Source of the DNA: Plebeiibacterium marinum
Lineage (GTDB): Bacteria > Bacteroidota > Bacteroidia > Bacteroidales > Marinilabiliaceae
Reading direction: 5' to 3'
NCBI RefSeq assembly: GCF_026013615.1
Contig: NZ_JAPDPI010000036.1
Span: forward strand, 1-52,906
DNA: 52,906 bases
Shown here piece after piece: positions 37,743 through 52,384 of this stretch (within the stretch, counting starts at the first letter, position 1; each line of letters starts with the position of its first letter). Position numbers and translations under genes: made by a program. The notes under the pieces were generated by a model. It saw only the letters and a program-made list of their open reading frames with translations. It was not told the origin of the DNA and did not search any database.

Positions 37743-37770
37743 TATAGATTTTACACACTAAATTTAAAAC

Positions 37771-37894
37771 GAATGAAACGAGCCATGAGAATCGTTAGAT
37801 CGACGAAGTCAAAATTTTCTCTTACAGAGAAGACATTATAGGCGAGTTCCATCGAATACCTATGGAAATAAAAATTATAATGAGATGAAACGAG
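37771..37894 (+). repeat. Leader repeat, copy B (upstream of RND pump gene)
   Basis: It mirrors copy A, with the identical AGTTCCATCGAATAC core at 37845-37859 and a terminal TTATAATGAGATGAAA. Where copy A continues into the adaptor gene, copy B continues into a seven-codon frame MKRACKI that ends at a TAA. That opening, ATGAAACGAGC, again resembles the start of both leader frames and begins the more degenerate copy C. Confidence 0.65.
37773..37841 (+). CDS. Possible 22-aa basic leader peptide B
   Basis: An ATG at 37773 opens a 22-codon frame (MKRAMRIVRSTKSK then FSLTEKTL) ending in TAG, related to the frame at 36560-36625. Several differences between the two are conservative (I/M, K/R, V/I), which hints at selection on the peptide rather than only on the RNA. 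It lies upstream of the RND pump gene. Not proven to be translated. Confidence 0.4.
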   Translation: MKRAMRIVRSTKSKFSLTEKTL

Positions 37895-38031
37895 CATGTA
37901 AAATTTAATTATTTAATTTTTCACACAAGCGAATGAAATATAACGTATTCATGAACACCGCTGAAAAATGAAATTTAGTGAATAATAAATTTTCTTGAGA
38001 GTTCCATGCAACAAACGAATAATATAAACGC
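37883..38031 (+). repeat. Leader repeat, degenerate copy C
   Basis: This copy starts with the same ATGAAACGAGC opening (37885) but its frame stops after seven codons. A second short frame (MKYNVFMNTAEK) follows, then AGTTCCAT at 38000-38007, the first eight bases of the core seen in copies A and B. The RND gene starts 24 bp later. It is probably a decayed third copy. Confidence 0.45.
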
Positions 38032-41000
38032 ATGAAAATAGTAAGTACATCTATAAAAAGAGGTACAGTACCTATTGTACTGTTTACCATTTTAATTCTG
38101 CTGGGATTATTTTCTGCAGCAAAAATAAAATACGCACTTATTCCTGAAATTACCTCTCCTACTGTTATGATTAGCACCATATATCCTGGAGCCAGTCCTA
38201 AAGATGTAGAACAATCAGTCACAGTACCTATTGAAGATGCAGTGGCCTCAATGGAAGGTATTGAGGAAATGACTTCTTCTTCAATTGAAAATTTATCTTT
38301 AATTACGCTTTCTTTAGCTTTTGATGCTGATGTAAACATTGCAGTGCAGGAAGTAACTCAAAAAGTAAATAGTATTGTAAATACACTACCTAATGAAGTA
38401 AAAGCTCCTTCTGTTGAGAAATTTGATATTAGTGCATTACCTATATTTATTGCCGGAGTAAATTCAAAACTTTCCGATAAAGATTTCTTTCAATTTGTCG
38501 AAGATCGAATCAAACCGGAATTAGCAAGTATACAAGGGGTTGCCAACGTTGGTCTTGTTGGTGGGGTTGAAAGAGAAATCAAAATTATGATTGATCCTTT
38601 AAAACTTAAAGCCAATAAGCTGAATTTGCTAAACGTCACCCAAATGATTCAGTATGCAAATATGGAATTGCCTACCGGAAAATTGCGTACGCCTACAAAT
38701 GAAATGACAATTCGTCTATCTGGAAAAATCAGAACCATCGATCAGTTAAAAAATATTATTGTCGGAGTTGACAAATCAGGATCCATTCTTAAACTGGGCA
38801 ATATTGCTGATGTTTATGATGGTATTGCTGATAAAGAAAAAATTACACGTATTAATGGCCTGGAAACAATAGGAATTGAAATCAGCAAGCAAAAAGATGC
38901 GAATTCAGTTGATGTTATTCGTTTAGTAAAAACTAAGTTTGCTGAACTTGAAAATCAATTTTCAACTGAAGGCATTAAATTTCAAATTGCAGAGGATCAA
39001 TCAAAATTTACATTACAAGCTGCTACTGCCGTAGAACATGACCTAATGATTGCCATTATTTTAGTTTCGGTAATTATGGTTCTTTTCTTACATAGCATAC
39101 GAAACTCTATTTTTGTGTTAGTGGCTATTCCCACATCTTTAATTTCAACTTTTACAGCAATGTACTTGTTAGACTTCTCTTTTGATTTGATTAGTTTAAC
39201 GTCCCTTTCATTGGTTGTTGGTTCATTAGTTGATGATGCCATTGTGGTTATAGAAAACATATATAGGCATATGGAGATGGGCAAAAATAAAGTCCAGGCT
39301 TCATTTGATGCTCTTAAAGAATTAGGTATGACAGTAACTGCTATTACATTAGTACTTGTTGCTGTATTCCTTCCTATTGCTTTTGTAACCGGTATTGTAG
39401 GAGATATACTTAGGGAGTATGCCGTTACAATCGTTATATCAATGTTGTTCAGCCTTTTAGTTTCGTTCACACTAGTTCCCTGGATGACTTCAAAATGGGC
39501 AAAGTTGTCAACTCCAAAAAATAACATTTTCGGAAAGTTCTTAAACGGATTTGAAAATGCCATTGAAAGCATTAATAAAAGAGTCGTTATAGCCATGCAC
39601 TGGTCTTTAAAACACAAAACCATTACGCTTATAGCCACGTTACTTGCTTTTTTCGGAACTTTTTTACTATTTCCTGCTGGTTATATTGGTGGTGAATTTG
39701 CATCTTCCGGAGACAGGGGAGTGTTTATGTTACGTATGGAATACTCTCACGATATTAGCCTTGATGAAAATAACACTGTGACTCGCAATATCGAAAAGTA
39801 CTTATTGGATCAGAAAGACGTAAAAATGGTTTATGCTACTATAGGTAAAAAATCAGGTACAATAAGCACGACTTCTACTCCATATTTCAGTGAAATAACA
39901 GTTTATATGACGGATAAAAATGAAAGAAATGTTTCAACCAGTGTCTTTGCCCGTCAAACAAAAGCTACGTTGGAAGAAACCATTATGGGTGCGAAAATTA
40001 AAGCAGTTTCAGTTAACATTATGGGTAGCGAAGATGTTCCATTAAGTTATTTTGTAGTGGGATATGATGTAGATAGTGTTATGCAATATGCAGAACAAGT
40101 TAAAGAATGCATGGCCTCTATTGATGGTACTATTGAAACAGAATTGAGTGTTGATAAAAATAATCCTGAGTATGTGATCAATGTTGATAGAGACAAAATG
40201 TCAAAATTAGGCTTAGATCTGGCTTCTGTAGCAGGTATATTAAGAACATCATTTGCAGGTAATACCGATAATAAATTCCGTGATGACACAAAAGAATATG
40301 ACATTAATATTCAATTGAATGCAGCTGATCGAAGAAACAAAAGCGATCTCGAGAATATTGTTTTCCCTTCAATAGCTACTAACGAATTAATTAAACTATC
40401 TCAATTTGCTGAGATAAATGAAGGTGTCGGTCCGTCAAGATTAGAAAGATATAACAGAGTTCCATCAACACAATTAACAAGCCAGATAATTGGTGTTTCT
40501 CAAGCTTCTGTACAAACAGCCTTTGAAACTAAATTAAAAGAAATTAAAGCTCCTGAAGGTACAAAAGTAACCACATCAAAACAAACCAGAATGATGGCAG
40601 AATCGTTCATATCCCTAGGCTTGGCTTTTTTAGCTGCTATTATTTCTGTTTACTTGATTATGGTGGTACTTTATGATAGTTGGGCCGATCCTTTTGTTGT
40701 GATGTTTTCTATTCCATTATCAATAATCGGTGCAATTTGGGCTTTAGCATTAGCAAATCAAACGTTAAACATTTTTTCTATTTTAGGTATTGTAATGCTG
40801 GTTGGTTTGGTTGCTAAAAATGCCATTTTGATTGTTGATTTTGCCAACGAATTACTAAATGAAGGTAAGAATCTGGTTGATGCTATTGAAACTGCAGTTA
40901 AACTGCGATTCCGTCCTATTTTAATGACTAATATTTCTATGATCATCGGACTATTACCTCTTGCATTTTCTCAAAGTGAAGGTGCAGAATGGAAAAATGG

Positions 41001-41142
41001 TATTGGTTGGACTCTTATTGGAGGATTAACAGTATCGATGTTTCTATCGATGATTATTGTCCCTATTGTATTTTATATTGTAAAAAGAATGCAACAAAAA
41101 TGGGGAATTACCTCTCATTCAAAAATCCAGGTTGAAGAATAA
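38032..41142 (+). CDS. RND-family inner-membrane efflux pump (AcrB/HAE1 type)
   Basis: The 1036-aa protein has the RND plan: TM1 near 13-31, a periplasmic porter loop (about 35-330), TM2-6 (about 335-480), a second loop (about 560-850) and TM8-12. The proton-relay pair Asp401-Asp402 in GSLVDDAIVVIENIY and Lys929 in LVAKNAILIVDF correspond to the AcrB charge network, so it should be an active proton-driven pump. The ISTIYPGASPKDVEQSVTVPIEDA motif is typical of hydrophobe/amphiphile exporters, whereas metal exporters carry different TM4 signatures. Substrate unknown. A terminator follows at 41170-41204. Confidence 0.95.
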   Translation: MKIVSTSIKRGTVPIVLFTILILLGLFSAAKIKYALIPEITSPTVMISTIYPGASPKDVEQSVTVPIEDAVASMEGIEEMTSSSIENLSLITLSLAFDADVNIAVQEVTQKVNSIVNTLPNEVKAPSVEKFDISALPIFIAGVNSKLSDKDFFQFVEDRIKPELASIQGVANVGLVGGVEREIKIMIDPLKLKANKLNLLNVTQMIQYANMELPTGKLRTPTNEMTIRLSGKIRTIDQLKNIIVGVDKSGSILKLGNIADVYDGIADKEKITRINGLETIGIEISKQKDANSVDVIRLVKTKFAELENQFSTEGIKFQIAEDQSKFTLQAATAVEHDLMIAIILVSVIMVLFLHSIRNSIFVLVAIPTSLISTFTAMYLLDFSFDLISLTSLSLVVGSLVDDAIVVIENIYRHMEMGKNKVQASFDALKELGMTVTAITLVLVAVFLPIAFVTGIVGDILREYAVTIVISMLFSLLVSFTLVPWMTSKWAKLSTPKNNIFGKFLNGFENAIESINKRVVIAMHWSLKHKTITLIATLLAFFGTFLLFPAGYIGGEFASSGDRGVFMLRMEYSHDISLDENNTVTRNIEKYLLDQKDVKMVYATIGKKSGTISTTSTPYFSEITVYMTDKNERNVSTSVFARQTKATLEETIMGAKIKAVSVNIMGSEDVPLSYFVVGYDVDSVMQYAEQVKECMASIDGTIETELSVDKNNPEYVINVDRDKMSKLGLDLASVAGILRTSFAGNTDNKFRDDTKEYDINIQLNAADRRNKSDLENIVFPSIATNELIKLSQFAEINEGVGPSRLERYNRVPSTQLTSQIIGVSQASVQTAFETKLKEIKAPEGTKVTTSKQTRMMAESFISLGLAFLAAIISVYLIMVVLYDSWADPFVVMFSIPLSIIGAIWALALANQTLNIFSILGIVMLVGLVAKNAILIVDFANELLNEGKNLVDAIETAVKLRFRPILMTNISMIIGLLPLAFSQSEGAEWKNGIGWTLIGGLTVSMFLSMIIVPIVFYIVKRMQQKWGITSHSKIQVEE

Positions 41143-41169
41143 TTTTCAATAACATTCGATAGCAAATAG

Positions 41170-41204
41170 AAAGGTCTCTCAAAATACTGAGTGACCTTTT
41201 TTAT
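41170..41204 (+). terminator. Rho-independent terminator of the efflux operon
   Basis: AAAGGTC-T-CTCA (41170-41181) pairs with TGAG-T-GACCTTT (41188-41199) with one internal mismatch and a six-base loop. The downstream arm runs into a T-rich tract (CCTTTTTTATT). It ends 28 bp after the RND stop codon and closes the operon before the second regulator gene. Confidence 0.85.
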
Positions 41205-41213
41205 TAATCAATA

Positions 41214-41247
41214 AGTTAAAATTTCTTAACTAGAAATAATATATTTG
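41214..41247 (+). promoter_or_regulatory. Palindrome and promoter box before the second AraC regulator gene
   Basis: AGTTAA-N6-TTAACT (41214-41231) is followed by TATATTTG (41240-41247), a perfect match to TAnnTTTG. The box ends only four bases before the ATG at 41252, so a start about seven bases downstream would give a nearly leaderless mRNA. The palindrome lies where the upstream promoter element would be, and no TTG is seen there. Confidence 0.4.
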
Positions 41248-41251
41248 TAAA

Positions 41252-42376
41252 ATGGATGATGCAATTATATACATCGGCTTAGCGCAGTCTGTTTTTTCAG
41301 CTTTTCTTATTTATTTCAAAAAGCCTTCTCTATTAGCTAATAAAATACTTGGCCTTTGGCTTTTTATGATAGCCTTATTATTTTCATTAAATGTTTATAA
41401 AATAAGTAATGAGATAACTATTGATTTATGGCCTATCTCAGCAAATATTATCATTACATTTCCTGTATTTTTATTTCTATATACAAAATATATAGTTACT
41501 GAATATAAGAAGTTTATTCTCTCGGATTTAATTCACTTTACACCTCTTATCATTGGGGTCGGAATTGCCATATTATATATCCCTAAAGATATTGACTTAT
41601 ACACTCCACTCATTGAGTCATTTGATGATAAACTTAAAGCATTAAGCTGGATTGGATATGTTTTTAAGTTCTCAATTTGGTTTTACAGCCTGTATGCACT
41701 TATCATTATTTATATCTATCGAACAAAAACAACAAGCTACTACTCTTTCTACTCAAACAAAATTAATTTAAGATGGTTGGTTGTATTAATAGTTTCTTTC
41801 TTTATTATATATAATTTAATCATTTATATAAGTTCAACTTATCACTTAAGTAGATTAATTACACATATAGAAAGATTCAGAAGTGGTTCCCTACTTATTT
41901 TTGTTTATATCGTAAGTATATGGGGATTTAGACAACATCAGTTATCTTCAAACGTAGCTCCCCCCGACCTCAACTTAAATAAAAAACCTTCAGAACTAGA
42001 CTCAGAAAGATATACTAAATCAGGACTTAAAGATGAGCAAGCTGAGAAGTATATGCAAAAGTTAATTGACTATATGAACAATTCTCTAATCTGGCAAGAA
42101 AATGAATTATCCCTTGCCAAACTTGCTGATGAAACGCAAATTCCTAAACATTATATAACCCAGGTTCTAAATGAGCATATTAAAAAGAACTTTTACACTT
42201 TTGTCAATGAGTATCGTACTGAATATGCCATGAAACTGATTAAATCACCTAAATACAAAGATTATTCATTCGTTGCTATTGCCTTTGAAAGTGGCTTTAA
42301 TTCTAAAACCGCATTTAATATCTTCTTCAAAAAATATACAGGTATGACTCCAAGTGAATTTAAGAAGAAAGAATAA
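41252..42376 (+). CDS. Membrane-anchored AraC-family regulator (7TM-HTH), copy 2
   Basis: A 374-aa paralogue of the product of 33689-34810. It has about seven hydrophobic segments (1-230), a polar linker and an AraC-type DNA-binding domain (about 285-372) with LSLAKLADETQIPKHYITQVLN, NFYTFVNEYRTEYAMKL and GFNSKTAFNIFFKKYTGMTPSEFKK. The C-terminal helix-turn-helix and the closing GMTPSEFKK are almost the same in both copies. It follows the efflux operon after a terminator and precedes a secreted nuclease/phosphatase-family gene by 19 bp, which may be cotranscribed. The efflux operon is its most likely target by position. Confidence 0.87.
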   Translation: MDDAIIYIGLAQSVFSAFLIYFKKPSLLANKILGLWLFMIALLFSLNVYKISNEITIDLWPISANIIITFPVFLFLYTKYIVTEYKKFILSDLIHFTPLIIGVGIAILYIPKDIDLYTPLIESFDDKLKALSWIGYVFKFSIWFYSLYALIIIYIYRTKTTSYYSFYSNKINLRWLVVLIVSFFIIYNLIIYISSTYHLSRLITHIERFRSGSLLIFVYIVSIWGFRQHQLSSNVAPPDLNLNKKPSELDSERYTKSGLKDEQAEKYMQKLIDYMNNSLIWQENELSLAKLADETQIPKHYITQVLNEHIKKNFYTFVNEYRTEYAMKLIKSPKYKDYSFVAIAFESGFNSKTAFNIFFKKYTGMTPSEFKKKE

Positions 42377-42395
42377 TAATTTAGGGATTATAAAA

Positions 42396-43361
42396 ATGAA
42401 ATCACTATTAACAATCCTACTCCTAATAACTTTCACCACAATCTGGTCTCAAAAACAAACATTACGTATTGCAACCTGGAATATAGAACACCTTGGATCT
42501 GCTGGTAGAGGTTTTCCTGAAATCAAAAAACAACTACCTGCACGGACCTCATCCGATTTTCAAATGATAGCAGCTCTTATAAAAGACACGTTAACATTAG
42601 ATATTGTTGCAGTTCAGGAAATAAGTATAACAGGATTTAAAAGCGAAACAGCCTATTCTAAAGAACTATATCAAATCATTAGTTATTTAGGATCTGATTG
42701 GAAATACTATCTGGCAAAAATAGATACAACAGAAAGAGAAACTGAAATGCAAAATGCATTTATCTACAACACGAATAGTGCTCATCTTTCAAAAGTCTTT
42801 GAAATGAATATAAATGATTTCAAAGTTGGAGCAAAATCAATATTTGATAGAGTACCTTTAGTTGGCTATTTCAAAGCAACCAATCCCAAAGTAAAAAACG
42901 AAGACTTCCTCATCGTCAATCTCCATCTGGCTTCCGGACAAGATAATGACGAAAACCATATTGTTGCCATGATCATGGTAGAACAAAACCTAAATGAAGA
43001 ACTAAAAGCACATGGAATAAGCACTCGCGAATACGATCGCATAATCCTGGGTGACTTCAACGATAACCCTTACTTAAAAGACGAAACAGGCAATAATGTC
43101 TACCTCCCAACACTATACAATTATATGAAATTAAAAGGCTACAAAGATTATGTCGATGAAACATTTCAAACAACAAGGATGAGCAAAAACATGAACAGTA
43201 TTATCGATCATATATTAGTAAAAGAAAACTTACAAGAAAATATCCCAAGTTCAAAGGCAACCATATACAAACCAGATGTTAAAAACAAAAGTACTTTAAA
43301 TAACTGGCGCTCTAACTATAGCGACCACTTTCCGATATCTATAGAAATCGATTTTAATTAA
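42396..43361 (+). CDS. Secreted endonuclease/exonuclease/phosphatase-family protein
   Basis: I start at the ATG at 42396 (321 aa), which gives a signal peptide ending TTIWSQ; an in-frame ATG at 42354 would overlap the upstream regulator gene. The DNase-I-like fold is shown by RIATWNIEHLG, DIVAVQEIS (metal-binding Glu), FLIVNLHLASGQD, IILGDFNDNPYL and YSDHFPISIEI (catalytic Asp-His), in the right order. It may degrade extracellular nucleic acid or act as a phosphodiesterase on lipids or sugars; the sequence does not decide. Cotranscription with the upstream regulator is likely. Confidence 0.9.
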   Translation: MKSLLTILLLITFTTIWSQKQTLRIATWNIEHLGSAGRGFPEIKKQLPARTSSDFQMIAALIKDTLTLDIVAVQEISITGFKSETAYSKELYQIISYLGSDWKYYLAKIDTTERETEMQNAFIYNTNSAHLSKVFEMNINDFKVGAKSIFDRVPLVGYFKATNPKVKNEDFLIVNLHLASGQDNDENHIVAMIMVEQNLNEELKAHGISTREYDRIILGDFNDNPYLKDETGNNVYLPTLYNYMKLKGYKDYVDETFQTTRMSKNMNSIIDHILVKENLQENIPSSKATIYKPDVKNKSTLNNWRSNYSDHFPISIEIDFN

Positions 43362-43396
43362 TGAATCTTTCTTTGCAAAACAAAAATATTTTTCCA

Positions 43397-43415
43397 AGTG
43401 CAAATACATTGCACT
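43397..43415. promoter_or_regulatory. Operator palindrome AGTGCAA-N5-TTGCACT, copy 1
   Basis: The 19-bp site AGTGCAAATACATTGCACT is a perfect 7+7 palindrome with a 5-bp spacer. It ends 9 bp before the promoter-like box TAATCTTG (43425-43432), upstream of the 68-aa gene at 43475. The same palindrome with the same spacer length and the same 9-bp distance to the promoter box occurs upstream of hsdM at 45885-45903. Confidence 0.8.
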
Positions 43416-43424
43416 CTACCTCGT

Positions 43425-43432
43425 TAATCTTG
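43425..43432 (+). promoter_or_regulatory. Promoter box for the 68-aa Cys/His protein gene
   Basis: TAATCTTG differs from TAnnTTTG at one position and lies 42 bp before the ATG at 43475. The operator at 43397-43415 covers the region where the upstream promoter element would bind, so an occupied operator would be expected to block RNA polymerase. Confidence 0.5.
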
Positions 43433-43474
43433 TACTGACAAAATAATTAATTAATCTTTTAAAATTTAAATGTT

Positions 43475-43681
43475 ATGTACAAGTATTACGTAAACAAAAA
43501 CCAACAATCAAATGGTGATCATGAAGTGCACAAAGAAGGTTGTCGTTACATGCCTGCTGCAGAAAACAGAATTTACTTAGGGGAGTTCTATTCGTGCCAG
43601 GGTGCTGTTAGCGCAGCCAAACAATACTACCCACGTGCAAATGGTTGCTATTATTGTAGTACTTCTTGCCACACAAGCTAA
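43475..43681 (+). CDS. Small Cys/His-rich protein of unknown function
   Basis: The 68-aa product has no signal peptide and a regular set of possible metal ligands: VHKEGCRYMP, LGEFYSC, then GCYYCSTSCHTS at the C-terminus. This gives His22, Cys26, Cys45, Cys61, Cys64 and Cys68-region residues (numbering approximate). I recall similar short proteins with a HxxxC...C...GCxxCxxxCH layout in many bacteria, without an assigned role. Its promoter carries the same operator as the type I modification operon 2.5 kb away, which ties it to the defence island. It is convergent with the nuclease gene at 43743. Confidence 0.75.
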   Translation: MYKYYVNKNQQSNGDHEVHKEGCRYMPAAENRIYLGEFYSCQGAVSAAKQYYPRANGCYYCSTSCHTS

Positions 43682-43685
43682 ATGT

Positions 43686-43724
43686 TTATGGGGGATTTAG
43701 ATATACAATTCTGATCCCCCATAA
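43686..43724. terminator. Hairpin between convergent genes
   Basis: TTATGGGGGAT (43686-43696) pairs perfectly with ATCCCCCATAA (43714-43724), an 11-bp G/C-rich stem with a 17-base loop. It lies between the stops of the 68-aa gene and the minus-strand nuclease gene. Neither strand shows a clean T-run after the stem, so it may act as a weak bidirectional terminator or an mRNA end-protecting hairpin. Confidence 0.55.
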
Positions 43725-43742
43725 AAATATTATCACAAATAG

Positions 43743-44819
43743 CTATAATGTCGATTGTAAACGGATTAACCTTTTTACATCTTTATAAATAATCTCAATT
43801 AATCTATTCAATGTCATATCGATAGGAATCTTTACGGCCTGATAACGCATCTTCCCAAATTTATTAAACCCTCCTTTTTGTGGATAAATTTCCTTTGCTT
43901 CTTCCCAATTAAATTGAAACCATTCTTTTTGCTTTAAAAGTTGATGTGATATATTCTCGGTATTGTTATCACCCCAGGCAAATACATAATTCAGATAACG
44001 TTGACCATCCAGCATAATCCCATAGATAATGTTATCCTCATCAGAATAATCAATATTCATTACACCTTTTCCTCTTACCATATTAATAGAGATTACGATT
44101 TTACCTCGGTCTTCTTCGTGAATATACCTTTTCCTTTTAATCACTTCTTTACTAAAAGTATTATTTTCAAAAAGGTAAGCATGTAATTTATTTTGCAGAT
44201 AAGAAAATTTTATTTTAATATAAAAATCATGCATTCTTATATCCTGAAAATATCGATATTGAGTTCCATGATAATCATACATCTCTTTTTCTGTATTTTC
44301 AGTAAGACCTTTTCCAACAATAGAAAGTCGTTCAATAAATAAGCAATAATCTTTAATTAAATTCTTGTGATACTTATTATCTACATCAATTATATCATAA
44401 AGCTCCTCAAGCATCTCCAATAGATCTAAGTATGATATTACATCCCATTTTTCAACCCTATCAAATGGAGGTTCAATAAGTGTCAATAAAATATATTTAG
44501 ATGCAATATTACTGTTACTATAATTTATAAGCTGTTCCTCATCCGGAATACTTTTGACTTTATTTTCGATGACAATTTTTTCATTTGTTTCAAATATTAT
44601 CGTTAAGTCAAGATTTTTGTTTTCTCTTAAAACTTTATGAATCACAAGTTCTTTTTCCAGAAACCTGGATGAAATAATCTTACCAAATTCAACTTTGTAT
44701 TCATCACATAACCACGCAATAAAGTTACTATGAAATAACTCTTTTGAACTTAACGAAAGATTAAATAGTGGTGATCTTTTTAGAGCTTCAATAGTATTAC
44801 TAATATGTGCTGTCATCAT
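43743..44819 (-). CDS. PD-(D/E)XK nuclease-superfamily protein
   Basis: A 358-aa protein whose N-terminal part shows a PD-(D/E)XK core: Glu27 in SLSSKELFHSNFIAWL, Asp71 in NLDLTIIF and Glu85-Asn-Lys87 in KIVIENKVKS, followed by EEQLINYS. This matches the PDDEXK_4-like group, often found in defence islands. The remainder (about 150-358) is unrecognised but has a basic, aromatic C-terminal half. Its start overlaps the stop of the WYL regulator gene by 4 bp, so the two are translationally coupled. It may be a restriction-like nuclease or a regulated effector; catalytic residues look intact. Target unknown. Confidence 0.82.
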   Translation of the reverse strand: MMTAHISNTIEALKRSPLFNLSLSSKELFHSNFIAWLCDEYKVEFGKIISSRFLEKELVIHKVLRENKNLDLTIIFETNEKIVIENKVKSIPDEEQLINYSNSNIASKYILLTLIEPPFDRVEKWDVISYLDLLEMLEELYDIIDVDNKYHKNLIKDYCLFIERLSIVGKGLTENTEKEMYDYHGTQYRYFQDIRMHDFYIKIKFSYLQNKLHAYLFENNTFSKEVIKRKRYIHEEDRGKIVISINMVRGKGVMNIDYSDEDNIIYGIMLDGQRYLNYVFAWGDNNTENISHQLLKQKEWFQFNWEEAKEIYPQKGGFNKFGKMRYQAVKIPIDMTLNRLIEIIYKDVKRLIRLQSTL

Positions 44820-45835
44820 TTTTGTTTTTGTTCAGAATAATAAGAATGATACATTACTTTTATTTTCTTTGCTATGTCATCTCTAATATTCTCTGGTAAT
44901 AATATTTCAACAGAATTCCCATAACTCAATATTAATGAGTAAAACTCATAATTAGGTATAAGTTGTAAACTAATCTCTACGTTTTCATCTGTCTCTTTAA
45001 TAACCTTTTGACTATTATGAATAGGTTTGGTAATAATATATTGAGCCTGTTTAATATCTATTCTTAAAACAATATCCTTAATATTTTCATCTTTAGGCAA
45101 AGTAATCCCTACTATATCTTTAAAATACTTTTCTACTTCAACAAAAGTGTTTCTAATATATTTCTCCTCTGATAAACTTACTGCTTCAATCCTATCCAAA
45201 GCATAAATACCTACACTTTTATAAGTTGAACTATAACCTATCAAATACCAACGATGATTATATTGTTTTAGTAAATAAGGATGAACAATGAATGTATTTG
45301 CATTAGGCGATTGAAAAGGTTTATATGTCAACTTTATTGGTACATGATCATTAATATATTTCATTAGTGAAGAAATATATTCTACTCCCTTTACCTCTTT
45401 TTGTTCAAATGCAATAACTCCGTTCCTGCTATCATTTTTCAATAAATCACCTTGAAACTTAGCCTGAACCAAAGCCAACTCTTCATTGATTGAAAGTCTC
45501 GGAAAGTTTTTTAATAATCTTAACGCATCATTAATAGCTTCAATATCCGTCTCTGATAATTCCGAATGATCTATGGAATAGTTTGGGTCTTCATATCTAA
45601 CCTCATTATTTTCAATTTTAATAGGAGCATCAAAACCTCTTGGAGGTAAACTTCGCATCAATTCAATATCATACCTGAAGGTGCGTAAACTTATTCCTTT
45701 ATCAATCCCAAAATGTTCATATAGCTGATCTCCAATCTCATCTATTAATTCCTGTACTGTCCAGATACGACTTGTATTTCTCAAACAATTGTTAATAACT
45801 CGGTAACGGAAGCTGGCCTGTTTATTCCTCGGCAT
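44816..45835 (-). CDS. WYL-domain transcriptional regulator
   Basis: A 339-aa regulator with an N-terminal winged HTH (about 8-85, including ISLRTFRYDIELMRSL) and a WYL domain (about 160-235) that contains the literal RWYLIGY motif. A C-terminal WCX-like region follows (about 245-335). Proteins of this layout (for example BrxR and CapW) repress defence operons by binding palindromic operators and may be released by a nucleic-acid ligand. It is divergent from hsdM; the 106-bp gap holds the AGTGCAA-N5-TTGCACT palindrome, its probable binding site. It is coupled to the nuclease-like gene downstream. Confidence 0.9.
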   Translation of the reverse strand: MPRNKQASFRYRVINNCLRNTSRIWTVQELIDEIGDQLYEHFGIDKGISLRTFRYDIELMRSLPPRGFDAPIKIENNEVRYEDPNYSIDHSELSETDIEAINDALRLLKNFPRLSINEELALVQAKFQGDLLKNDSRNGVIAFEQKEVKGVEYISSLMKYINDHVPIKLTYKPFQSPNANTFIVHPYLLKQYNHRWYLIGYSSTYKSVGIYALDRIEAVSLSEEKYIRNTFVEVEKYFKDIVGITLPKDENIKDIVLRIDIKQAQYIITKPIHNSQKVIKETDENVEISLQLIPNYEFYSLILSYGNSVEILLPENIRDDIAKKIKVMYHSYYSEQKQK

Positions 45836-45884
45836 GTGTATTTTTTAGTTAGTTTTGTGCCAATAAAATTAATTTAATTTCACC

Positions 45885-45903
45885 AGTGCAAAAAGATTGC
45901 ACT
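45885..45903. promoter_or_regulatory. Operator palindrome AGTGCAA-N5-TTGCACT, copy 2
   Basis: AGTGCAAAAAGATTGCACT is the second copy of the palindrome at 43397-43415, with identical 7-bp arms and a 5-bp spacer of different sequence. It lies between the divergent WYL regulator and hsdM genes and ends 9 bp before the hsdM promoter box at 45913. The identical arms but different spacers argue for protein binding rather than a recent duplication. Confidence 0.82.
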
Positions 45904-45912
45904 CGCATCTTT

Positions 45913-45920
45913 TTACTTTG
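45913..45920 (+). promoter_or_regulatory. Promoter box for hsdM
   Basis: TTACTTTG, one mismatch from TAnnTTTG, lies 21 bp before the hsdM ATG. The operator covers the upstream half of the promoter. A start near 45927 would give a very short leader. Confidence 0.5.
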
Positions 45921-45941
45921 CATTAAAATAAATCAAATAAT

Positions 45942-47501
45942 ATGCTCACAGGACAACAACGTAATGACATAGATAAAATATGGAAGGAATTCTGGCAAAA
46001 CGGAATGACTGACCCTCTTAGTATCATTAAACAAATTACTTACCTTCTGTTTATTCGAAGTATAGATAAACAACAGGAAGCAAAAGAAAAGCAAGCCAAC
46101 AAACTTCGTATGGAAGTGCAAGATCCTATATATACCGAAGATCAACGTGAATTACGATGGAATGTATTCAAGGATAAGGATCCGGAACAAATGTTTAGTC
46201 TTTTTCGAAAAGAAGGTGGAGTCTTTGATTTCATTAAAAATCTGGGAGCCAAAGGAGGTTTATTTGCCGAAACCATGCGCTATGCAAATTTTGACATCAA
46301 CTCGCCAAAGCTTTTGGACAGAGTGGTTCAAATGCTGGATCAAATCAAATTAGAAGATCGTGATACCAAAGGAGACGTTTATGAATACTTACTTTCTAAA
46401 CTATCCTCAGCAGGTATTAACGGACAATTCCGAACACCAAAGCATATTATCCGCATGATGGTAGATTTATTGCAGCCACAAACTGATGAATTGGTCTGTG
46501 ATCCCGCTGCAGGTTCTGCAGGTTTTTTGGTTAGTGTGGTTGAATATTTAAGAGAAAACTATCCCGACGAATTTTACAAAAAGGAATTCCGTGAACATTT
46601 TAACAATGGAATGTTTAACGGTTTTGAAAGTGACAATACCATGGTAGGTATCAGTGCCATGAACCTGCAAATGCATGGTATCGACAATCCTAAACTAAAA
46701 TACATGGATGCCCTTTCTGGTGATAACGCTATTAAAGACAAATACTCTTTAATATTAGCGAATCCACCTTTTACGGGTTCTGTAGATTACGATGGCATAG
46801 AATTAAGTTTGAAAAAAGCGCTTAATCTGGGTAAAACAGCCAAAAGTGCTAAAACAGAATTGCTATTCCTGGCCCTTATGCTACGCATGTTACGCCCGGG
46901 AGGACGATGTGCAGTTATTGTTCCTGCTGGTGTGTTATTTGGAAGTACAAAAAGTCACTTAGCTGTTCGTAAGAAACTTATTGACGAAAACCAACTGCAA
47001 GCTGTTATTTCCATGCCTTCCGGAGTGTTTAAACCATACACAGGTGTAGCTACTGCAATTTTAGTATTTACAAAAACCGGAACTGGTGGTACCGACAAAG
47101 TTTGGTTCTACGATATGAAAGCCGATGGCTACACCTTAGATGACAAAAGAGAAATATTGGGTAAACCGGATGAAAAAGAACCCGAAATACCCACTTTAAG
47201 AACTTACAAACACGAAGAAAACAATATTCCGGACATCATAGAAAAGTTTCATCATATAACCCAAAACCTGTCAGCGTCTAAAGACCTGACAGCGTTTGCA
47301 CAAGATCGCTCCTCCCAACACTTCTTCGTATCCGTAGATGAAATCAGAGAAGAAAACTACAACCTATCATTTAACCTTTACCAGGAAATTGTTTACGAAG
47401 AAATTAAATATGATTCGCCCAAAGTAATAATCGATAGAATTAGCCAATTGGATATGGAACGTAAGGATTTAATGAAAGAGTTGGGAGGATTGTTGGGATG
47501 A
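45942..47501 (+). CDS. hsdM: Type I restriction-modification DNA methyltransferase subunit
   Basis: A 519-aa N6-adenine methyltransferase. The N-terminal helical HsdM domain spans about 1-150. The catalytic domain has motif I DPAAGSAGF starting at Asp187 (S-adenosylmethionine binding) and motif IV NPPF at 274-277, with GRCAVIVPAGVLFG and TGVATAILVFTK following. All required motifs are intact. With HsdS it forms the modification complex. Its stop overlaps the hsdS start by 4 bp. The operator and promoter lie directly upstream. Confidence 0.96.
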   Translation: MLTGQQRNDIDKIWKEFWQNGMTDPLSIIKQITYLLFIRSIDKQQEAKEKQANKLRMEVQDPIYTEDQRELRWNVFKDKDPEQMFSLFRKEGGVFDFIKNLGAKGGLFAETMRYANFDINSPKLLDRVVQMLDQIKLEDRDTKGDVYEYLLSKLSSAGINGQFRTPKHIIRMMVDLLQPQTDELVCDPAAGSAGFLVSVVEYLRENYPDEFYKKEFREHFNNGMFNGFESDNTMVGISAMNLQMHGIDNPKLKYMDALSGDNAIKDKYSLILANPPFTGSVDYDGIELSLKKALNLGKTAKSAKTELLFLALMLRMLRPGGRCAVIVPAGVLFGSTKSHLAVRKKLIDENQLQAVISMPSGVFKPYTGVATAILVFTKTGTGGTDKVWFYDMKADGYTLDDKREILGKPDEKEPEIPTLRTYKHEENNIPDIIEKFHHITQNLSASKDLTAFAQDRSSQHFFVSVDEIREENYNLSFNLYQEIVYEEIKYDSPKVIIDRISQLDMERKDLMKELGGLLG

Positions 47502-48664
47502 GTTGGAAAAAAGTTAAACTTGGCAACACTGCAACTTTTACTAATGGATATGCATTTAAACCCCAAGATTGGGATTCAGAAGGGAAAGAAATAATTCGTA
47601 TACAAAATTTGACCGGCAAAGGAAAAGATATTAATTATTTCAACGGTGATATTGATGAAAAATATAAAGTTACTAAAGGTGACTTATTGATTTCATGGTC
47701 AGCTACATTAGGTATTTTTGAATGGCAAAAAGAAGACGCTTGGTTAAACCAACATATTTTCAAAGTAGTGTTTAATAAAATGGCTATTGACAAAGCATTC
47801 TTCAAACATTTAATTTCATCAATATTAATGTCGTTTTCCCAAAGAGTACACGGTTCAACAATGAAGCATATAACTAAGGGAAATTTTGACAACACCGATG
47901 TATCTATACCTTCTCTTCCCGAGCAAAAAAGAATAGCAACTATATTAGACAAAGCCGAGGCCTTATGCCAAAAAAACAAAGAACAACTGGCCGTATACGA
48001 TGAGCTTTTGCAATCTGTATTTTTAGATATTTTTGGTGATCCGGTGAGTAATCCTATGGGGTGGGAGAAGAAAGTATTGATTAATCTTATTTCAAATATT
48101 GATGGAGGATGGAGTCCAAAATGTGATGGTTTTTCTAGAAAAAGTAAAGAAAATTGGGCTATATTAACTTTATCATCCATATCAGAAAGAACATATAAAG
48201 AGACTTTTAATAAAAACCTACCTGAGTCTTTGTCTCCCAAAACAAACTTAGAAGTTAAATCAAACGATTTACTTTTTTCACGTAAAAACACAAAAGAATT
48301 AGTTGGGGCGTGCGCATATGTTTTTAATACTCAGCCTAAACTAATGATTCCTGATACGATCTTTAGAATCAATTATATTCCACTGAAAATTAACGGGGTT
48401 TATACATATTTTTTATTGAACCATATTAATTTCAGGAAAAGTATACAAAAACTTGCTACAGGCAGTGCCGGATCAATGCCAAATATTTCAAAAGAAAAAC
48501 TTAAAAAATTATATATTCCACTTCCTCCAATAACTCTTCAAAACAAATTTGCTCAAATAGTTGAAAATATTGAAGCTCAAAAGGAATTATTAAAAAAGAG
48601 TATAAACGAGAGTGATGATCTATTTAATGGATTAGTACAAAAAGCTTTTAAAGGAGAATTATAG
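47498..48664 (+). CDS. hsdS: Type I restriction-modification specificity subunit
   Basis: A 388-aa protein with two target-recognition domains (about 1-140 and 190-345), each followed by a coiled-coil conserved region. The first runs PSLPEQKRIATILDKAEALCQ and the second PLPPITLQNKFAQIVENIEAQ (each given as partial motif). These set the spacing between the two half-sites of the recognition sequence. Both halves are full length, so a bipartite asymmetric site is expected. Translationally coupled to hsdM. No second partial hsdS or recombinase is seen, so there is no sign of specificity switching here. Confidence 0.93.
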   Translation: MSWKKVKLGNTATFTNGYAFKPQDWDSEGKEIIRIQNLTGKGKDINYFNGDIDEKYKVTKGDLLISWSATLGIFEWQKEDAWLNQHIFKVVFNKMAIDKAFFKHLISSILMSFSQRVHGSTMKHITKGNFDNTDVSIPSLPEQKRIATILDKAEALCQKNKEQLAVYDELLQSVFLDIFGDPVSNPMGWEKKVLINLISNIDGGWSPKCDGFSRKSKENWAILTLSSISERTYKETFNKNLPESLSPKTNLEVKSNDLLFSRKNTKELVGACAYVFNTQPKLMIPDTIFRINYIPLKINGVYTYFLLNHINFRKSIQKLATGSAGSMPNISKEKLKKLYIPLPPITLQNKFAQIVENIEAQKELLKKSINESDDLFNGLVQKAFKGEL

Positions 48665-48692
48665 ACAAAACCAATCACTTAAAACCTAAACT

Positions 48693-49298
48693 ATGGGAAA
48701 TGATACTATAAAAATGATACTAAGCATTATAATTCCAATATTTACTGCTTTTGTATCTGCTGTAACAACTCATTATTTTAACAATAAATCATTTCGTTCA
48801 CCATTTAAAAGAACAAAAAAATTAGATGAGTTAAAAAGTCAAATGAACTTTTACGAAGAAATAGATACTGAATATTATAAGTTTATTAAAAAGAAATTTA
48901 TTGAAGATGACTTTTATCTACAAACAGGTATTCATACCGATTATGATACTATTCCGAAATATATTGAATTCAGAAATCAAATAGGAGATAAATATAATTG
49001 GAAGCAAATCAAAAGAGCTCGTTCATACTTTTCAACTATATCTGAGCAGATTGAAGTAAGTATAACCAAAATCGAGAATATTATTATGTGGATTTTTTCA
49101 GTTATAGGTTTTCTTTTAATATTTGCTGCAGTTGTTTTTATCAATATTCAAAAAGATGGAACCTTAACAGAAAAACTTGCCCTTTTATCATTAGTTTTTG
49201 TATCCGTATTTTTTGGCTTTGCATTTATAAAAGCTGTAGATCCTATTTATATAGCAAATCAAATGAAAAAGAGTTTAATCAAATCTCAACAAGTATAA
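48693..49298 (+). CDS. Membrane protein of unknown function, coupled to HEPN gene
   Basis: The 201-aa product has one hydrophobic segment at the N-terminus (ILSIIIPIFTAFVSAV, about 8-26), a soluble charged middle (about 35-125) and two adjoining C-terminal membrane segments (MWIFSVIGFLLIFAAVVFI and LLSLVFVSVFFGFAFI, about 131-185). I do not recognise a family. It is 28 bp downstream of hsdS and its stop overlaps the next start codon (TAATG), so it is probably made together with the HEPN protein. A membrane partner for a ribonuclease effector would fit the context; this is inference. Confidence 0.65.
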   Translation: MGNDTIKMILSIIIPIFTAFVSAVTTHYFNNKSFRSPFKRTKKLDELKSQMNFYEEIDTEYYKFIKKKFIEDDFYLQTGIHTDYDTIPKYIEFRNQIGDKYNWKQIKRARSYFSTISEQIEVSITKIENIIMWIFSVIGFLLIFAAVVFINIQKDGTLTEKLALLSLVFVSVFFGFAFIKAVDPIYIANQMKKSLIKSQQV

Positions 49299-50140
49299 TG
49301 ATTAGAATAGATATTCAAAAAAAGATTGATTATAAGGTTACTCTCGCAATTGAAGAGTTATTACAAACAGCTAGAACCCAGCAATTACATCCATGTGAAC
49401 TATTATTGGTTCAACAACATGGACATTTTTGGAATATCAATGGTAAAAAAGAATACATGATTGGTCCTGGTGAAGTAGGATTAAGTGCCTTTTCCCATAT
49501 AAATTATATTTATCGTCAAGCCAGAACTTTTCACTGGCAAGAAAATCTGGATTACAAAACCATCAATAAAAACCAACTTACAGCAATAGAAGATACTATT
49601 CACTCAGAAAAATTATTATACCTAAAAATCTGGGAAAACAATTACCTATTAGAACTATTTACTCAACTTTCAATTTTAGCTCAAGGTAAACATTACGATT
49701 GGGATCTTGAAATACCGACAACTCAAAAAAGCAATACAAAAGCAGACCATATACGAAATAATATAAAAAATCCATTACAAAATTTATGTCCCAAATTTTA
49801 TGAAATTTTAAATAAATCCTATTCTCAACAATTACGGAATGCAATAGCACATTCTCAATATGAATTCATTCAAGGTGGCATTAAATACTTGAATTATAAT
49901 CCTAGTAAGTTTTGCACTATTGAAGCAATGGGTTATACAGATTGGGAAGAAAGAATTGCATATACATTTGCAATATTCTTTGGTTTACATCGTCTCATGG
50001 ATATTATTCAAGAAGCTTATGCTAAAAAAACATTAGCCCAAGGAAATTCAATTGAAGTGAAAATTCCATACAAAGATGGATATGCTTACCAATTCTTAAC
50101 ATATATAGAGAATCAAAAAAGATGGGTTTTTAAACATTAA
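49298..50140 (+). CDS. HEPN-motif protein, putative RNase effector
   Basis: I place the start at the ATG at 49298, overlapping the upstream stop (TAATG), giving 280 aa; a longer frame from 49088 would lie inside the upstream gene. Residues 180-185 read RNAIAH, an R-x4-H motif in the helical context QQLRNAIAHSQYEF, which is the signature of HEPN ribonucleases. The downstream EERIAYTFAIFFGLHRLMDIIQEAY helix completes a HEPN-like bundle (quoted as partial segments). The N-terminal half (about 1-140) is not recognised. HEPN proteins serve as RNA-cleaving toxins in many defence systems. It stands between hsdS and the RloA/RloB pair. Confidence 0.65.
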   Translation: MIRIDIQKKIDYKVTLAIEELLQTARTQQLHPCELLLVQQHGHFWNINGKKEYMIGPGEVGLSAFSHINYIYRQARTFHWQENLDYKTINKNQLTAIEDTIHSEKLLYLKIWENNYLLELFTQLSILAQGKHYDWDLEIPTTQKSNTKADHIRNNIKNPLQNLCPKFYEILNKSYSQQLRNAIAHSQYEFIQGGIKYLNYNPSKFCTIEAMGYTDWEERIAYTFAIFFGLHRLMDIIQEAYAKKTLAQGNSIEVKIPYKDGYAYQFLTYIENQKRWVFKH

Positions 50141-50160
50141 AAATTATGTTCTTTTTTAAA

Positions 50161-50183
50161 ATATTGCAATTAAATTGCAATAT
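50161..50183. promoter_or_regulatory. Palindrome upstream of the RloA-like gene
   Basis: ATATTGCAAT (50161-50170) and ATTGCAATAT (50174-50183) form a perfect 10+10 palindrome around TAA. A further half-site-like ATTGCAA lies at 50195-50201, overlapping the upstream promoter element. It differs from the AGTGCAA operator of hsdM, so a separate control is likely. Confidence 0.65.
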
Positions 50184-50195
50184 CACAGAATACAA

Positions 50196-50226
50196 TTGCA
50201 AACAATACTTCTTTTTGCTATATTTG
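50196..50226 (+). promoter_or_regulatory. Bacteroidota promoter for the RloA/RloB pair
   Basis: TTG at 50196-50198, a 20-bp spacer and TATATTTG at 50219-50226 give a full match to the TTG-N19/21-TAnnTTTG pattern. The box ends 29 bp before the ATG at 50256. It shows that the ATPase pair has its own promoter rather than depending on the hsdM promoter. Confidence 0.65.
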
Positions 50227-50255
50227 TAAATAAATTACAATAAATATAAATAGAG

Positions 50256-51530
50256 ATGATACAAGAGCTAAAAATAAAGAATTTCCTGTCATTTAAAGAT
50301 GAGGTTGTATTCAGTTTTGAGGCTACATCTGATAAAACATTAGAAAATTACTATGTAGCCGAACAACCTGATGGTACACGACTTTTAAAGTTGGCTATGG
50401 TATATGGGGCAAATGCCTCAGGTAAAAGTAACTTAATAGCTGCTTTTCAGTTTTTGAACGATTTCACTTCCAATATACCGGAGGAAAAGGGAATGGATAC
50501 ACAGTTTGTTCCATTTATGTTTGACAAAACAATTTTAAAACCTGGAGTATTAGAACTGATATTTTATCCTAACGGGAAAAAGTATAAATATCAATTAATT
50601 ATTAATCCATCCGAAGTTTTAGAAGAAAAACTTTTTTTCTATCCGGGAACGCAACCTGCCGTTGTATTCGAAAGAACCTTTAACGAAAAAAGCAAAACAT
50701 CGATAATTGAATTTGGTGCAAAAATTAATATTTCAAATCAGGCGAAAGAAGCTATACAATTAAAGACATTAAAAAACACTTCTGTTTTAGCAGCATACAA
50801 TCAGGTAAACCTTTCAATAGCCGAAATAGATACGGTTAATGAATGGTTTGAAGATCAATATTTAAATTCAATCGATCCATACATGGATCTTACCGGATAT
50901 TCTGATGATGCGATTCAAAAAAGTAATGACGTAAAAGAACACGTTTTAGAATTTCTTAAAGAAGCAGATTTTAATATTACGGATGTCAAGTTCGAAGATA
51001 AGATAAGAAAGTTACCCGATTTCTTATTAAAAAATATTGATTCATCCCCTTTTTCTGACGAACAAAAGGAACAAATTAAAAAAGAAAAGGCAATTCATAT
51101 TGAAGAGACAGTTTTTACACATAAAGTTTTGATGGATGGAGAAGAAAAATATTTTTCTCTACCGGAAAGAAGGCAATCAAAAGGAACCTTAAGATATTAT
51201 GGTCTTTCTGCTCCTTTTTATCACACTATACAACGTAATGCTTTTCTTCCAATTGATGAAATCGGTTCGGCTCTGCATCCACTATTAGTCATTCATTTTA
51301 TTTCAGAATTTCTTAAAAAATCAGAAAGAGCCCAATTGTTATTCACAACACATAACATGTCTCTTTTAAATGAAAAAGATATTCTAAGAAAAGATGCTAT
51401 ATGGTTTACAGAGAAAAAAGAAGATGGAGCTACTGATTTATTTTCGATGTCAGACTTCAACTTCCGTAAAGAGTTGTCTTTTTTCAATGCATATAAAATT
51501 GGAAAATTTGGTGCAATACCTGAACTGTAA
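50256..51530 (+). CDS. RloA-like AAA/ABC-type ATPase
   Basis: A 424-aa SMC/ABC-like ATPase. It starts IQELKIKNFLSFKDEVVF, has Walker A GANASGKS at 51-58 and, near the C-terminus, Walker B with adjoining signature FLPIDEIGSALHP followed by the switch His in TTHNMSLL. The middle (about 90-320) is variable. With the RloB-like protein encoded 3 bp downstream it resembles the RloA/RloB pairs found in type I restriction loci and the AbiL phage-exclusion genes. It probably senses infection and controls the partner. Confidence 0.88.
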   Translation: MIQELKIKNFLSFKDEVVFSFEATSDKTLENYYVAEQPDGTRLLKLAMVYGANASGKSNLIAAFQFLNDFTSNIPEEKGMDTQFVPFMFDKTILKPGVLELIFYPNGKKYKYQLIINPSEVLEEKLFFYPGTQPAVVFERTFNEKSKTSIIEFGAKINISNQAKEAIQLKTLKNTSVLAAYNQVNLSIAEIDTVNEWFEDQYLNSIDPYMDLTGYSDDAIQKSNDVKEHVLEFLKEADFNITDVKFEDKIRKLPDFLLKNIDSSPFSDEQKEQIKKEKAIHIEETVFTHKVLMDGEEKYFSLPERRQSKGTLRYYGLSAPFYHTIQRNAFLPIDEIGSALHPLLVIHFISEFLKKSERAQLLFTTHNMSLLNEKDILRKDAIWFTEKKEDGATDLFSMSDFNFRKELSFFNAYKIGKFGAIPEL

Positions 51531-51533
51531 TCT

Positions 51534-52148
51534 ATGAGAAGAGCAAGAAAAGAACGTCGATTCAAATTAAAATATGCTGTCCTAGGTGAAGGCATTACTG
51601 AACAGTGGTATTTAAGTCATCTCAAGAAATATAAAGGCTATATATATAATATTAGACCTTCATTATTTGCAGATGTTAGCATTGAAAAAGCAGAAGGTAT
51701 TATTGACGAACTGCTTTCAGGAGGATGTGACCAGATTACTTTTTTAACAGATTACGATTCCATTGTGAATCAAGGAAAGAAAGATGTATTCGATAAAATT
51801 GTAGATAAATATAAAGATATTGAGGAGGTCTTAATTTGTGATTCCATGCCTAGTATTGAATATTGGTTTTTATTGCATTTCAAATACACAACAAAAGAGT
51901 ATCTTAATTGTGAGCAGGTTATCAAAGATCTTAAAACTCATATTTCTGACTACTCTAAAAAAGAGGTGTATTTAAAACAAGATAAATGGTTTAAAAGATT
52001 AATAGCAAACGATGGTTTAAACAAGGCCATTAGAAATGCCAATAACGGATTAAAACAATACGAAAAGGGGAATGTTGGAGATCATTTTCCATTTTCAAAA
52101 ATACATGAAGCTTTAAATGCTTTTGAAAATCATATAAAGAAAAAATAG
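51534..52148 (+). CDS. RloB-like protein (TOPRIM-like effector candidate)
   Basis: The 204-aa product matches the RloB family: RRARKERRFKLKYAVLGEGITEQWYL near the N-terminus (in segments), TFLTDYDS near residue 78 and MPSIEYWFLLHFKYT near 107. The GEGxTE and DxD pair look like the metal-binding residues of a TOPRIM-type nuclease domain, as in AriB/OLD-like effectors; that comparison is my inference. It is expected to act with the ATPase encoded 3 bp upstream. No signal peptide. A 236-bp gap with several hairpins follows. Confidence 0.85.
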   Translation: MRRARKERRFKLKYAVLGEGITEQWYLSHLKKYKGYIYNIRPSLFADVSIEKAEGIIDELLSGGCDQITFLTDYDSIVNQGKKDVFDKIVDKYKDIEEVLICDSMPSIEYWFLLHFKYTTKEYLNCEQVIKDLKTHISDYSKKEVYLKQDKWFKRLIANDGLNKAIRNANNGLKQYEKGNVGDHFPFSKIHEALNAFENHIKKK

Positions 52149-52226
52149 ATACCAGATAAATTAATTACAAACTAAATGGAGAAATAAATAGGACAAGAAT
52201 AAATAAAACATAAGAGCTTAAAACTC

Positions 52227-52353
52227 AAAAAGCGAATATCTATCGTTCCGCCAAGACACCAGGATATTCACTTTTTGCTACGCAGATTTTGATTTCCAGG
52301 AAATCCACAAACCTTGCTCGGGCTTGTTGTATCCGCACATTTCGTTTGCGAAA
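52227..52353. other. Cluster of three inverted repeats in an intergenic region
   Basis: The gap 52149-52384 is more GC-rich and structured than other gaps in the window. AAAAAG-C-GAATATC (52227-52240) pairs with GATATTC-A-CTTTTT (52263-52276), one mismatch. GATTTCC-A-GGAAATC (52291-52305) is a perfect palindrome. TTTCG-TTTG-CGAAA (52340-52353) is a small stem-loop. It could be a terminator for rloB with an operator, a structured RNA, or the end of an old mobile element. No open frame supports a gene. Confidence 0.45.
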
Positions 52354-52384
52354 ATAGAATTAATAATTTAAAAATAAAGAAAAC

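What the first reader, a model, noticed from the sequence alone, without database searches (positions are those of the whole stretch)
43397..45903. Identical 19-bp operator in register at two promoters, hsdM and a 68-aa Cys/His protein gene, flanking a WYL regulator
AGTGCAA-N5-TTGCACT occurs at 43397-43415 and 45885-45903. In both cases the palindrome ends exactly 9 bp before a TAnnTTTG-like box. The spacers differ while the arms are identical, which argues for a conserved protein-binding site. The WYL regulator gene (44816-45835) lies between the two sites. Known WYL regulators such as BrxR and CapW repress defence genes from such palindromes. This places an uncharacterised 68-aa Cys/His protein in the same regulon as a type I modification operon.
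Basis: partly seen in the sequence, partly recalled or inferred. Interest (0 to 1): 0.8.

Follow-up and report, generated by a model that had tools for sequence, protein, structure and literature searches.

The report
Three-promoter WYL switch in defence island
A bacterial antiviral gene island carries closely similar regulator-binding sequences, at one fixed distance from the start signal, in front of three separate gene groups, and related bacteria use similar sequences beside their RNA-repair genes, so one family of switch proteins may control both kinds of damage response.

Summary
Both 19-bp palindromes are real and the only exact copies in the 5.62 Mb genome. Comparison supports a WYL-regulator site. 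A related palindrome lies within 300 bp upstream of 30 of the 40 best-ranked WYL relatives (shuffles: mean 0.8, maximum 3). A third in-register palindrome (50163-50181) precedes an AbiL-like AAA/RloB pair; the composite pattern, written after seeing all three, occurs three times in the genome, all here. A genome of the same family keeps the C68 site.

Corrections: 38 of 60 fetched WYL relatives sit near RNA-repair genes (0 of 28 control stretches), mostly with CGC-type arms; the window lies in a TGC-type clade. The family profile matches PafBC better than BrxR or CapW, and the dyad sits where a -33 element would be, so activation is at least as likely as repression. C68 belongs to PHROG 4298, function unknown; 29 homologues examined outside the own family lack the site. 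No binding data.

The parts
43397..43415 (+). Operator 1, AGTGCAA-N5-TTGCACT, before C68; dyad centre at about -33
   Evidence: kept with one arm base changed at the orthologous locus in G975
43425..43432 (+). TAATCTTG, -7-like box of C68, 9 bp after operator 1
   Evidence: register as in the family
43475..43681 (+). C68: 68-aa Cys/His protein gene, PHROG 4298, function unknown
   Evidence: AF2 mean pLDDT 95.1, pTM 0.82
43743..44819 (-). PDDEXK_4 nuclease-like gene, overlaps the WYL gene by 4 bp
   Evidence: Pfam PF14281 E 2e-6; PADLOC PDC-S26
44816..45835 (-). WYL-WCX regulator gene
   Evidence: Pfam WYL 7e-13, WCX 1.4e-9; tree; profile match to PafBC
45885..45903 (+). Operator 2, between divergent WYL and hsdM genes; in register for hsdM
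45913..45920 (+). TTACTTTG, -7-like box of hsdM, 9 bp after operator 2
45942..47501 (+). hsdM, type I methyltransferase
47498..48664 (+). hsdS, type I specificity subunit
50163..50181 (+). Proposed operator 3, ATTGCAA-N5-TTGCAAT (2 mismatches from the strict pattern), 74 bases before the AAA gene
   Evidence: an AAA homologue in G1004 has an in-register TGCAA-N5-TTGCA palindrome upstream
50191..50198 (+). TACAATTG, -7-like box, 9 bp after operator 3
50256..51530 (+). AAA_21 ATPase, AbiLi-like
   Evidence: Pfam 2.1e-33; PADLOC AbiLi 1.5e-75
51534..52148 (+). RloB, AbiLii-like
   Evidence: Pfam 1.4e-19; PADLOC AbiLii 6.6e-16

Best explanation
The island is a small regulon of its own WYL protein. 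A WYL dimer binds palindromes with core TGCAA-N5-TTGCA, each centred at about -33 and ending 9 bp before a Bacteroidota-type -7 box, at three promoters: C68, hsdM-hsdS (and, from the other side, probably WYL-nuclease), and AbiL-like AAA-RloB. Shown by sequence: sites, register, family-wide conservation, and an operator type shared with the closest WYL relatives. Inferred: binding, the third site's membership, and sign. I think the WYL protein most likely acts as an activator that takes the place of -33 recognition, in the manner recalled for PafBC, when it senses a nucleic-acid damage product (activation 0.50, repression by occlusion 0.40, both 0.10).
For: Related palindromes within 300 bp upstream of 30 of the 40 best-ranked WYL relatives, 200 shuffles mean 0.8, maximum 3. 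TTTG exactly 13 nt past the palindrome in 45 of 146 flanks, mean 1.1 at offsets other than 12-14. In the window's five-row clade (support 96/96) all four other members have a TGCA-N7-TGCA palindrome that starts 24-36 bp before the WYL start; three of the four pass the strict test, L148 does not. Exact pair unique in the genome. The composite pattern occurs 3 times in 5.62 Mb, all in this island and on one strand, control 0; the other 11 of 14 core palindromes lie in open reading frames. The exact copies in two unrelated genomes and two near-copies in the own genome are not in register and have no WYL match nearby. C68 site kept in G975. An AAA homologue in G1004 has an in-register palindrome. 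For activation: PafBC E 2.1e-9 against chains named BrxR 0.0096 and CapW 0.056; the GCA core occupies the positions of a -33 TTTG (spacing recalled); the register is one-sided, 48 flanks toward the divergent gene, 12 toward WYL.
Against: No binding, footprint or expression data. The closest WYL relative found is 40% identical. 0 of 29 C68 homologues examined outside the own family have the site. In G975 the WYL gene is a remnant and C68 is cut short, yet the C68 site remains, while no such palindrome is left before hsdM. Operator 3 deviates by 2 bases, and the composite pattern was written after seeing it; the G1004 contig shows no WYL match. The composite pattern also occurs in 12 of 70 other family genomes (14 hits, 5 for the backwards control), and only the G975 locus had a WYL match, a remnant, within about 1.5 kb. 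10 of 40 relatives lack a site within 300 bp. Of eight same-genus WYL matches four have a CGC-type palindrome at -61 or -62, one (L198) a TGCA-type one at -118, and three neither within 250 bp. WYL's own promoter has no clear in-register box. Two chains called only 'WYL domain-containing protein' (7tb5, 7qfz), which I recall as CapW and BrxR of other species, match at 2.7e-4 and 3.3e-4, so the distance to BrxR/CapW is smaller than the named chains suggest.
Confidence: 0.8

Rival explanations
1. Same regulator and sites, but a BrxR/CapW-type repressor: the dimer covers the -33 region and blocks polymerase until a ligand releases it.
For: BrxR and CapW bind palindromes at their promoters and repress; both published BrxR sites have 5-bp spacers (passages). 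Operator 2 lies between divergent genes, as CapW's does. Two chains that I recall as CapW and BrxR match the family profile at about 3e-4.
Against: The profile is closer to PafBC and other WYL chains. A repressor does not need nearly fixed spacing to the -7 box. The promoters have no room for a separate -33 element (spacing recalled).
Confidence: 0.4
2. The C68 site is a hitchhiker: a mobile phage-type gene landed by or kept an operator but its control has no role.
For: 0 of 29 C68 homologues examined outside the own family have the site; in G975 the site persists with WYL reduced to a remnant.
Against: In G975 the arms (one base changed) and the box register are kept while the spacer and the bases in between differ; the C68-WYL-hsdM order is kept in two genera.
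Confidence: 0.15
3. Another regulator, not this WYL protein, reads the palindromes.
For: A palindrome alone does not name its reader; the third site's counterpart in G1004 lies on a contig without a WYL match.
Against: Sites track the WYL gene and its clade: of upstream sites, CGC-type go with RNA repair in 29 of 34 loci, TGC-type in 0 of 6, window included.
Confidence: 0.07
4. Chance repeats.
For: With mismatches allowed the counts are near chance.
Against: Exact and core patterns, register and conservation.
Confidence: 0.01

Closest known systems
PafBC (WYL activator of DNA-damage genes)
   Same: WYL-WCX type; best match of the family profile among solved structures (6sj9, E 2.1e-9); fixed spacing to the downstream promoter box (PafBC spacing recalled, not looked up)
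   Different: another phylum and another motif (recalled); here a single protein at a 19-bp palindrome
DriD-like WYL regulators (chain 8tp8, listed as DeoR-family regulator; the name DriD is recalled)
   Same: profile match E 2.9e-7
   Different: site and ligand not compared here
BrxR (BREX regulator)
   Same: palindrome with 5-bp spacer at defence promoters, two sites in one island (passages); 34 of 210 of its defence associations are type I restriction
   Different: weaker match (named chain E 0.0096; 7qfz, recalled as a BrxR, 3.3e-4); no family-wide promoter register in the passages I saw
CapW (CBASS regulator)
   Same: divergent from a defence operon, palindrome at the promoter (passages)
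   Different: weaker match (named chain E 0.056; 7tb5, recalled as a CapW, 2.7e-4); its sites overlap -10, here centred at about -33
RptR
   Same: controls a type I R-M island (passages)
   Different: small alpha-helical repressor with 6-bp TAGCTA repeats
RtcR (CARF activator of rtcBA)
   Same: controls RNA repair genes (start of an abstract; passages)
   Different: CARF protein of the NtrC type; the Bacteroidota loci here have WYL proteins

Membership tests
WYL-domain transcription regulators | WYL and WCX domains | tested here: met
   Pfam above cut-off
WYL-domain transcription regulators | N-terminal winged HTH | tested here: inconclusive
   No HTH family in Pfam at E 0.01; conserved N-terminal block with S48, R50, T51, D55 invariant in 8 sequences
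BrxR/CapW family | Sequence kinship with BrxR or CapW beyond other WYL proteins | tested here: not met
   PafBC 2.1e-9 and seven other chains at or below 2.9e-7 rank above 7tb5 (2.7e-4), 7qfz (3.3e-4), BrxR (0.0096) and CapW (0.056)
BrxR/CapW family | Palindromic site at defence promoters | tested here: met
   binding itself not tested
BrxR/CapW family | Represses its targets; homodimer; ligand release | not testable with these tools
   needs protein and strains
PafBC-like activators | Closest profile match among solved structures | tested here: met
PafBC-like activators | Fixed spacing of site to -10/-7 box, no -35/-33 element | tested here: met
   the -33 spacing rule and the PafBC rule are recalled
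PafBC-like activators | Activation on nucleic-acid damage | not testable with these tools
   needs expression data
Type I R-M | hsdM, hsdS and hsdR | tested here: inconclusive
   hsdM and hsdS in window; no HSDR_N match on this contig, three elsewhere in the genome; the one on a 6160-base contig is 75% identical to the hsdR-type gene downstream of the 86%-identical hsdM in G975; linkage to the window not shown
AbiL | AbiLi ATPase plus AbiLii | tested here: met
   PADLOC 1.5e-75 and 6.6e-16; function not tested

The most novel reading that the evidence does not exclude
A Bacteroidota WYL family acts as a PafBC-like promoter-adapting activator with a two-letter operator code: CGC-type arms drive RNA-repair operons (RtcB, Ro/TROVE, RlaP, RNA ligase), TGC-type arms drive antiphage islands. 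Both would respond to a shared nucleic-acid damage product, so that cut RNA or DNA turns on repair and defence together, and C68 is a phage-type small protein drafted into one such island.
Probability: 0.3. Interest if true: 0.85.

Novelty: new variant of a known kind. Interest (0 to 1): 0.62.

Why it matters
It gives a testable operator code for a large WYL family (160 of 395 class genomes, own included, have a match at E 1e-25). That code predicts targets and ties RNA repair and antiphage defence to one regulator family. It places a widespread phage/plasmid small protein of unknown function and an AbiL-like pair in a regulon with a type I modification operon. In nine searches of an open-licence library I saw no paper describing this code or a WYL regulator of Bacteroidota RtcB/TROVE loci; I saw mostly listings (searches list only part of their hits) and found passages of nine papers. 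A central review on RNA repair (Burroughs and Aravind 2016) is not held, so earlier mention is possible.

Tried and rejected
C68 homologues as footprint: TTACGG...CCGTAA-like palindromes precede several copies, this one does not; not followed. C68 fold: the confident model found nothing (best viral E 0.34, best PDB E 2.5). An idea from memory that it resembles the Ada zinc domain had no test: 0 of 21 own and related genomes carried that family; dropped. First guess that the right arm's TTG is the -33 element: rejected, only 13 bases lie between it and the box, fewer than the recalled spacing. Exact sites in G186 and G382 and the near-matches L003 and L004: not in register, best WYL match E 0.14. 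Rfam: nothing in 36000-52906 at gathering scores. My first composite pattern had a wrong spacing and was replaced.

Selection told: one search used the 40 best-ranked matches besides the window. One search took 20 of 33 further listed matches, by rank and then by my choice, so not at random. The tree labels counted L124 (only an unassigned neighbour) as RNA repair, left out L160, and left 18 of 65 rows in no group; one search corrects the first two. RNA-repair neighbours were called by tblastn with six proteins whose families Pfam confirmed, not by Pfam in each locus. The PWM was trained on the same loci; 37 of 40 reached 17 bits somewhere in their stretch, which is not independent. L163 had no upstream bases and was left out of the C68 count (29 of 30).
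Full report
OBSERVATION. The two palindromes are exact and in the stated places. They are the only exact copies in the 5.62 Mb genome. The exact pattern occurs in 3 of 395 genomes of the phylum, own included, and its backwards control in 5 of 395. The two outside copies, and two near-copies in the own genome, are not in register with a TTTG box and have no WYL match nearby (best E 0.14). The core TGCAA-N5-TTGCA occurs 14 times in the genome, its control once; three lie within 6.8 kb here and the other 11 are inside open reading frames.

SURROUNDINGS. The window is a whole contig. The island reads: C68 (+), PDDEXK_4 nuclease (-), WYL (-), hsdM, hsdS, two unassigned genes, AAA/AbiLi-like, RloB/AbiLii-like, DUF2188 (all +). 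The WYL and nuclease genes overlap by 4 bp, so operator 2 probably also serves the nuclease (inference).

PHYLOGENETIC FOOTPRINT. WYL relatives were found in 160 of 395 class genomes, own included, at E 1e-25; the best is 40% identical. In the 40 best-ranked, a GCA-N7-TGC palindrome with at least 2 of 4 outer pairs lies within 300 bp upstream in 30 (200 shuffles: mean 0.8, maximum 3). The window site read toward WYL, AGTGCAATCTTTTTGCACT, shares core and spacer with sites such as CTACGCAATCTTTTTGCGTAG. In the own genus, 8 further WYL matches were looked at: four have a CGC-type palindrome at -61 or -62, one (L198) a TGCA-type one at -118, three neither within 250 bp.

REGISTER. Over 146 flanks of 73 sites (window included), TTTG starts exactly 13 nt after the 19-mer end in 45, and at 12-14 in 61; other offsets average 1.1. 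Without the window, 53 of 72 sites, in 42 of 48 loci, have it on at least one side. hsdM has TTTG and C68 CTTG at 13. The register is one-sided: 48 of 60 in-register flanks point to the divergent gene.

THIRD SITE. A search for the core plus register, written after seeing all three sites, gives exactly three hits in the genome, all in this island and all on the + strand, control 0. The third, at 50163-50181, lies before the AAA/RloB pair. In the own family the same pattern occurs in 13 of 71 genomes, own included; outside the own genome it has 14 hits against 5 for the backwards control, so most of those may be background. One of them (G1004) lies before a 50%-identical AAA gene, in register both ways, on a contig without a WYL match.

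ORTHOLOGOUS LOCUS. In G975, of the same family, the locus holds C68 (74% over 47 residues, cut short), a WYL remnant (76% over 37 residues) and hsdM (86%). The C68 operator has one arm base changed, another spacer and the same register. No TGCA-N7-TGCA palindrome remains before hsdM there.

FAMILY. 38 of 60 fetched WYL loci carry a relative of RtcB, TROVE, RlaP or T4-type RNA ligase, against 0 of 28 control stretches (the query proteins' families checked by Pfam). Of loci with a scored site within 300 bp upstream, CGC-type arms go with RNA repair in 29 of 34 and TGC-type in 0 of 6, window included; one is mixed (Fisher p 1.2e-4, loci not independent). In the tree the RNA-repair rows lie on one side of a supported branch (95/97) and the window in a five-row clade (96/96), with long branches. 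The four other rows of that clade have TGCA-type palindromes that start 24-36 bp before the WYL start. One of them, L143, has five such palindromes around a reverse transcriptase, an RtcR/PspF2-like gene and others.

MECHANISM. The family profile matches PafBC (2.1e-9) and a DriD-like chain (2.9e-7; name recalled) better than two chains that I recall as CapW and BrxR (2.7e-4, 3.3e-4) and those named BrxR (0.0096) and CapW (0.056). The palindrome core occupies where a -33 TTTG would be (consensus recalled). Nearly fixed spacing plus a missing -33 element is what an activator contacting polymerase would give; a repressor needs neither. I therefore put activation at 0.50 and repression at 0.40, with binding itself inferred.

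C68. It belongs to PHROG 4298, unknown function. Matches at E 0.001 are in 34 of 395 phylum genomes, own included, about ten of them short partial matches; at E 0.01 in 16 phage records and 33 plasmid records. None of 29 homologues examined outside the own family has the site within 150 bp upstream; the one in G975 has. The AF2 model is confident (pLDDT 95.1) but found no clear structural relative. Its role is unknown; a small metal-binding accessory of phage type is my guess.

LITERATURE. BrxR, CapW and RptR papers were seen in found passages only, and the CARF/WYL paper likewise. Two papers on phage conflict systems state that WYL proteins may sense cyclic-phosphate RNA ends or cyclic nucleotides, one that some CARF or WYL factors regulate conflict systems or RNA repair (passages). 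This fits the novel reading and lessens its novelty.

VERDICT. A regulatory design well supported by comparison, correctly spotted, probably larger than described, with its sign left open.

Noticed in passing
L090-L129, L143-L162: WYL genes near RNA-repair genes (RtcB, TROVE, RlaP, RNA ligase relatives) in 38 of 60 loci, with CGC-type operators at several places in some of them.
   Followed up: partly
L094, L112, L109, L091: tRNA genes lie in 8 of 14 of these loci scanned (12 in L094, 7 in L112), in L109 and L091 close to the operator.
   Followed up: no
L036 1185-3031: Five similar TGCA-type palindromes at 1185, 2064, 2382, 2695 and 3013, between small genes beside a WYL gene.
   Followed up: no
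L038, L044, L053, L054, L056: C68 homologues in these genomes have TTACGG...CCGTAA-like palindromes upstream instead, imperfect in L053.
   Followed up: no
L183 (own contig C173): 6160-base contig with an hsdR-type gene 75% identical to that of the G975 locus, after two genes that look by eye like a CBASS-type nucleotidyltransferase and a membrane partner; may be the continuation of the window.
   Followed up: partly
window 48693-50140: Two genes between hsdS and operator 3 without Pfam, NCBIfam or PADLOC match; the first has a 35% relative before the AAA gene in G1004.
   Followed up: no
L053 9597-10244: C68 homologue directly followed by an ORF that looks by eye like a WYL N-terminal fragment, with a full WYL gene about 2.5 kb on.
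   Followed up: no
L058 1501-1742: The unrelated exact palindrome copy in G186 lies next to a 73-aa ORF that looks by eye like a small HTH protein.
   Followed up: no
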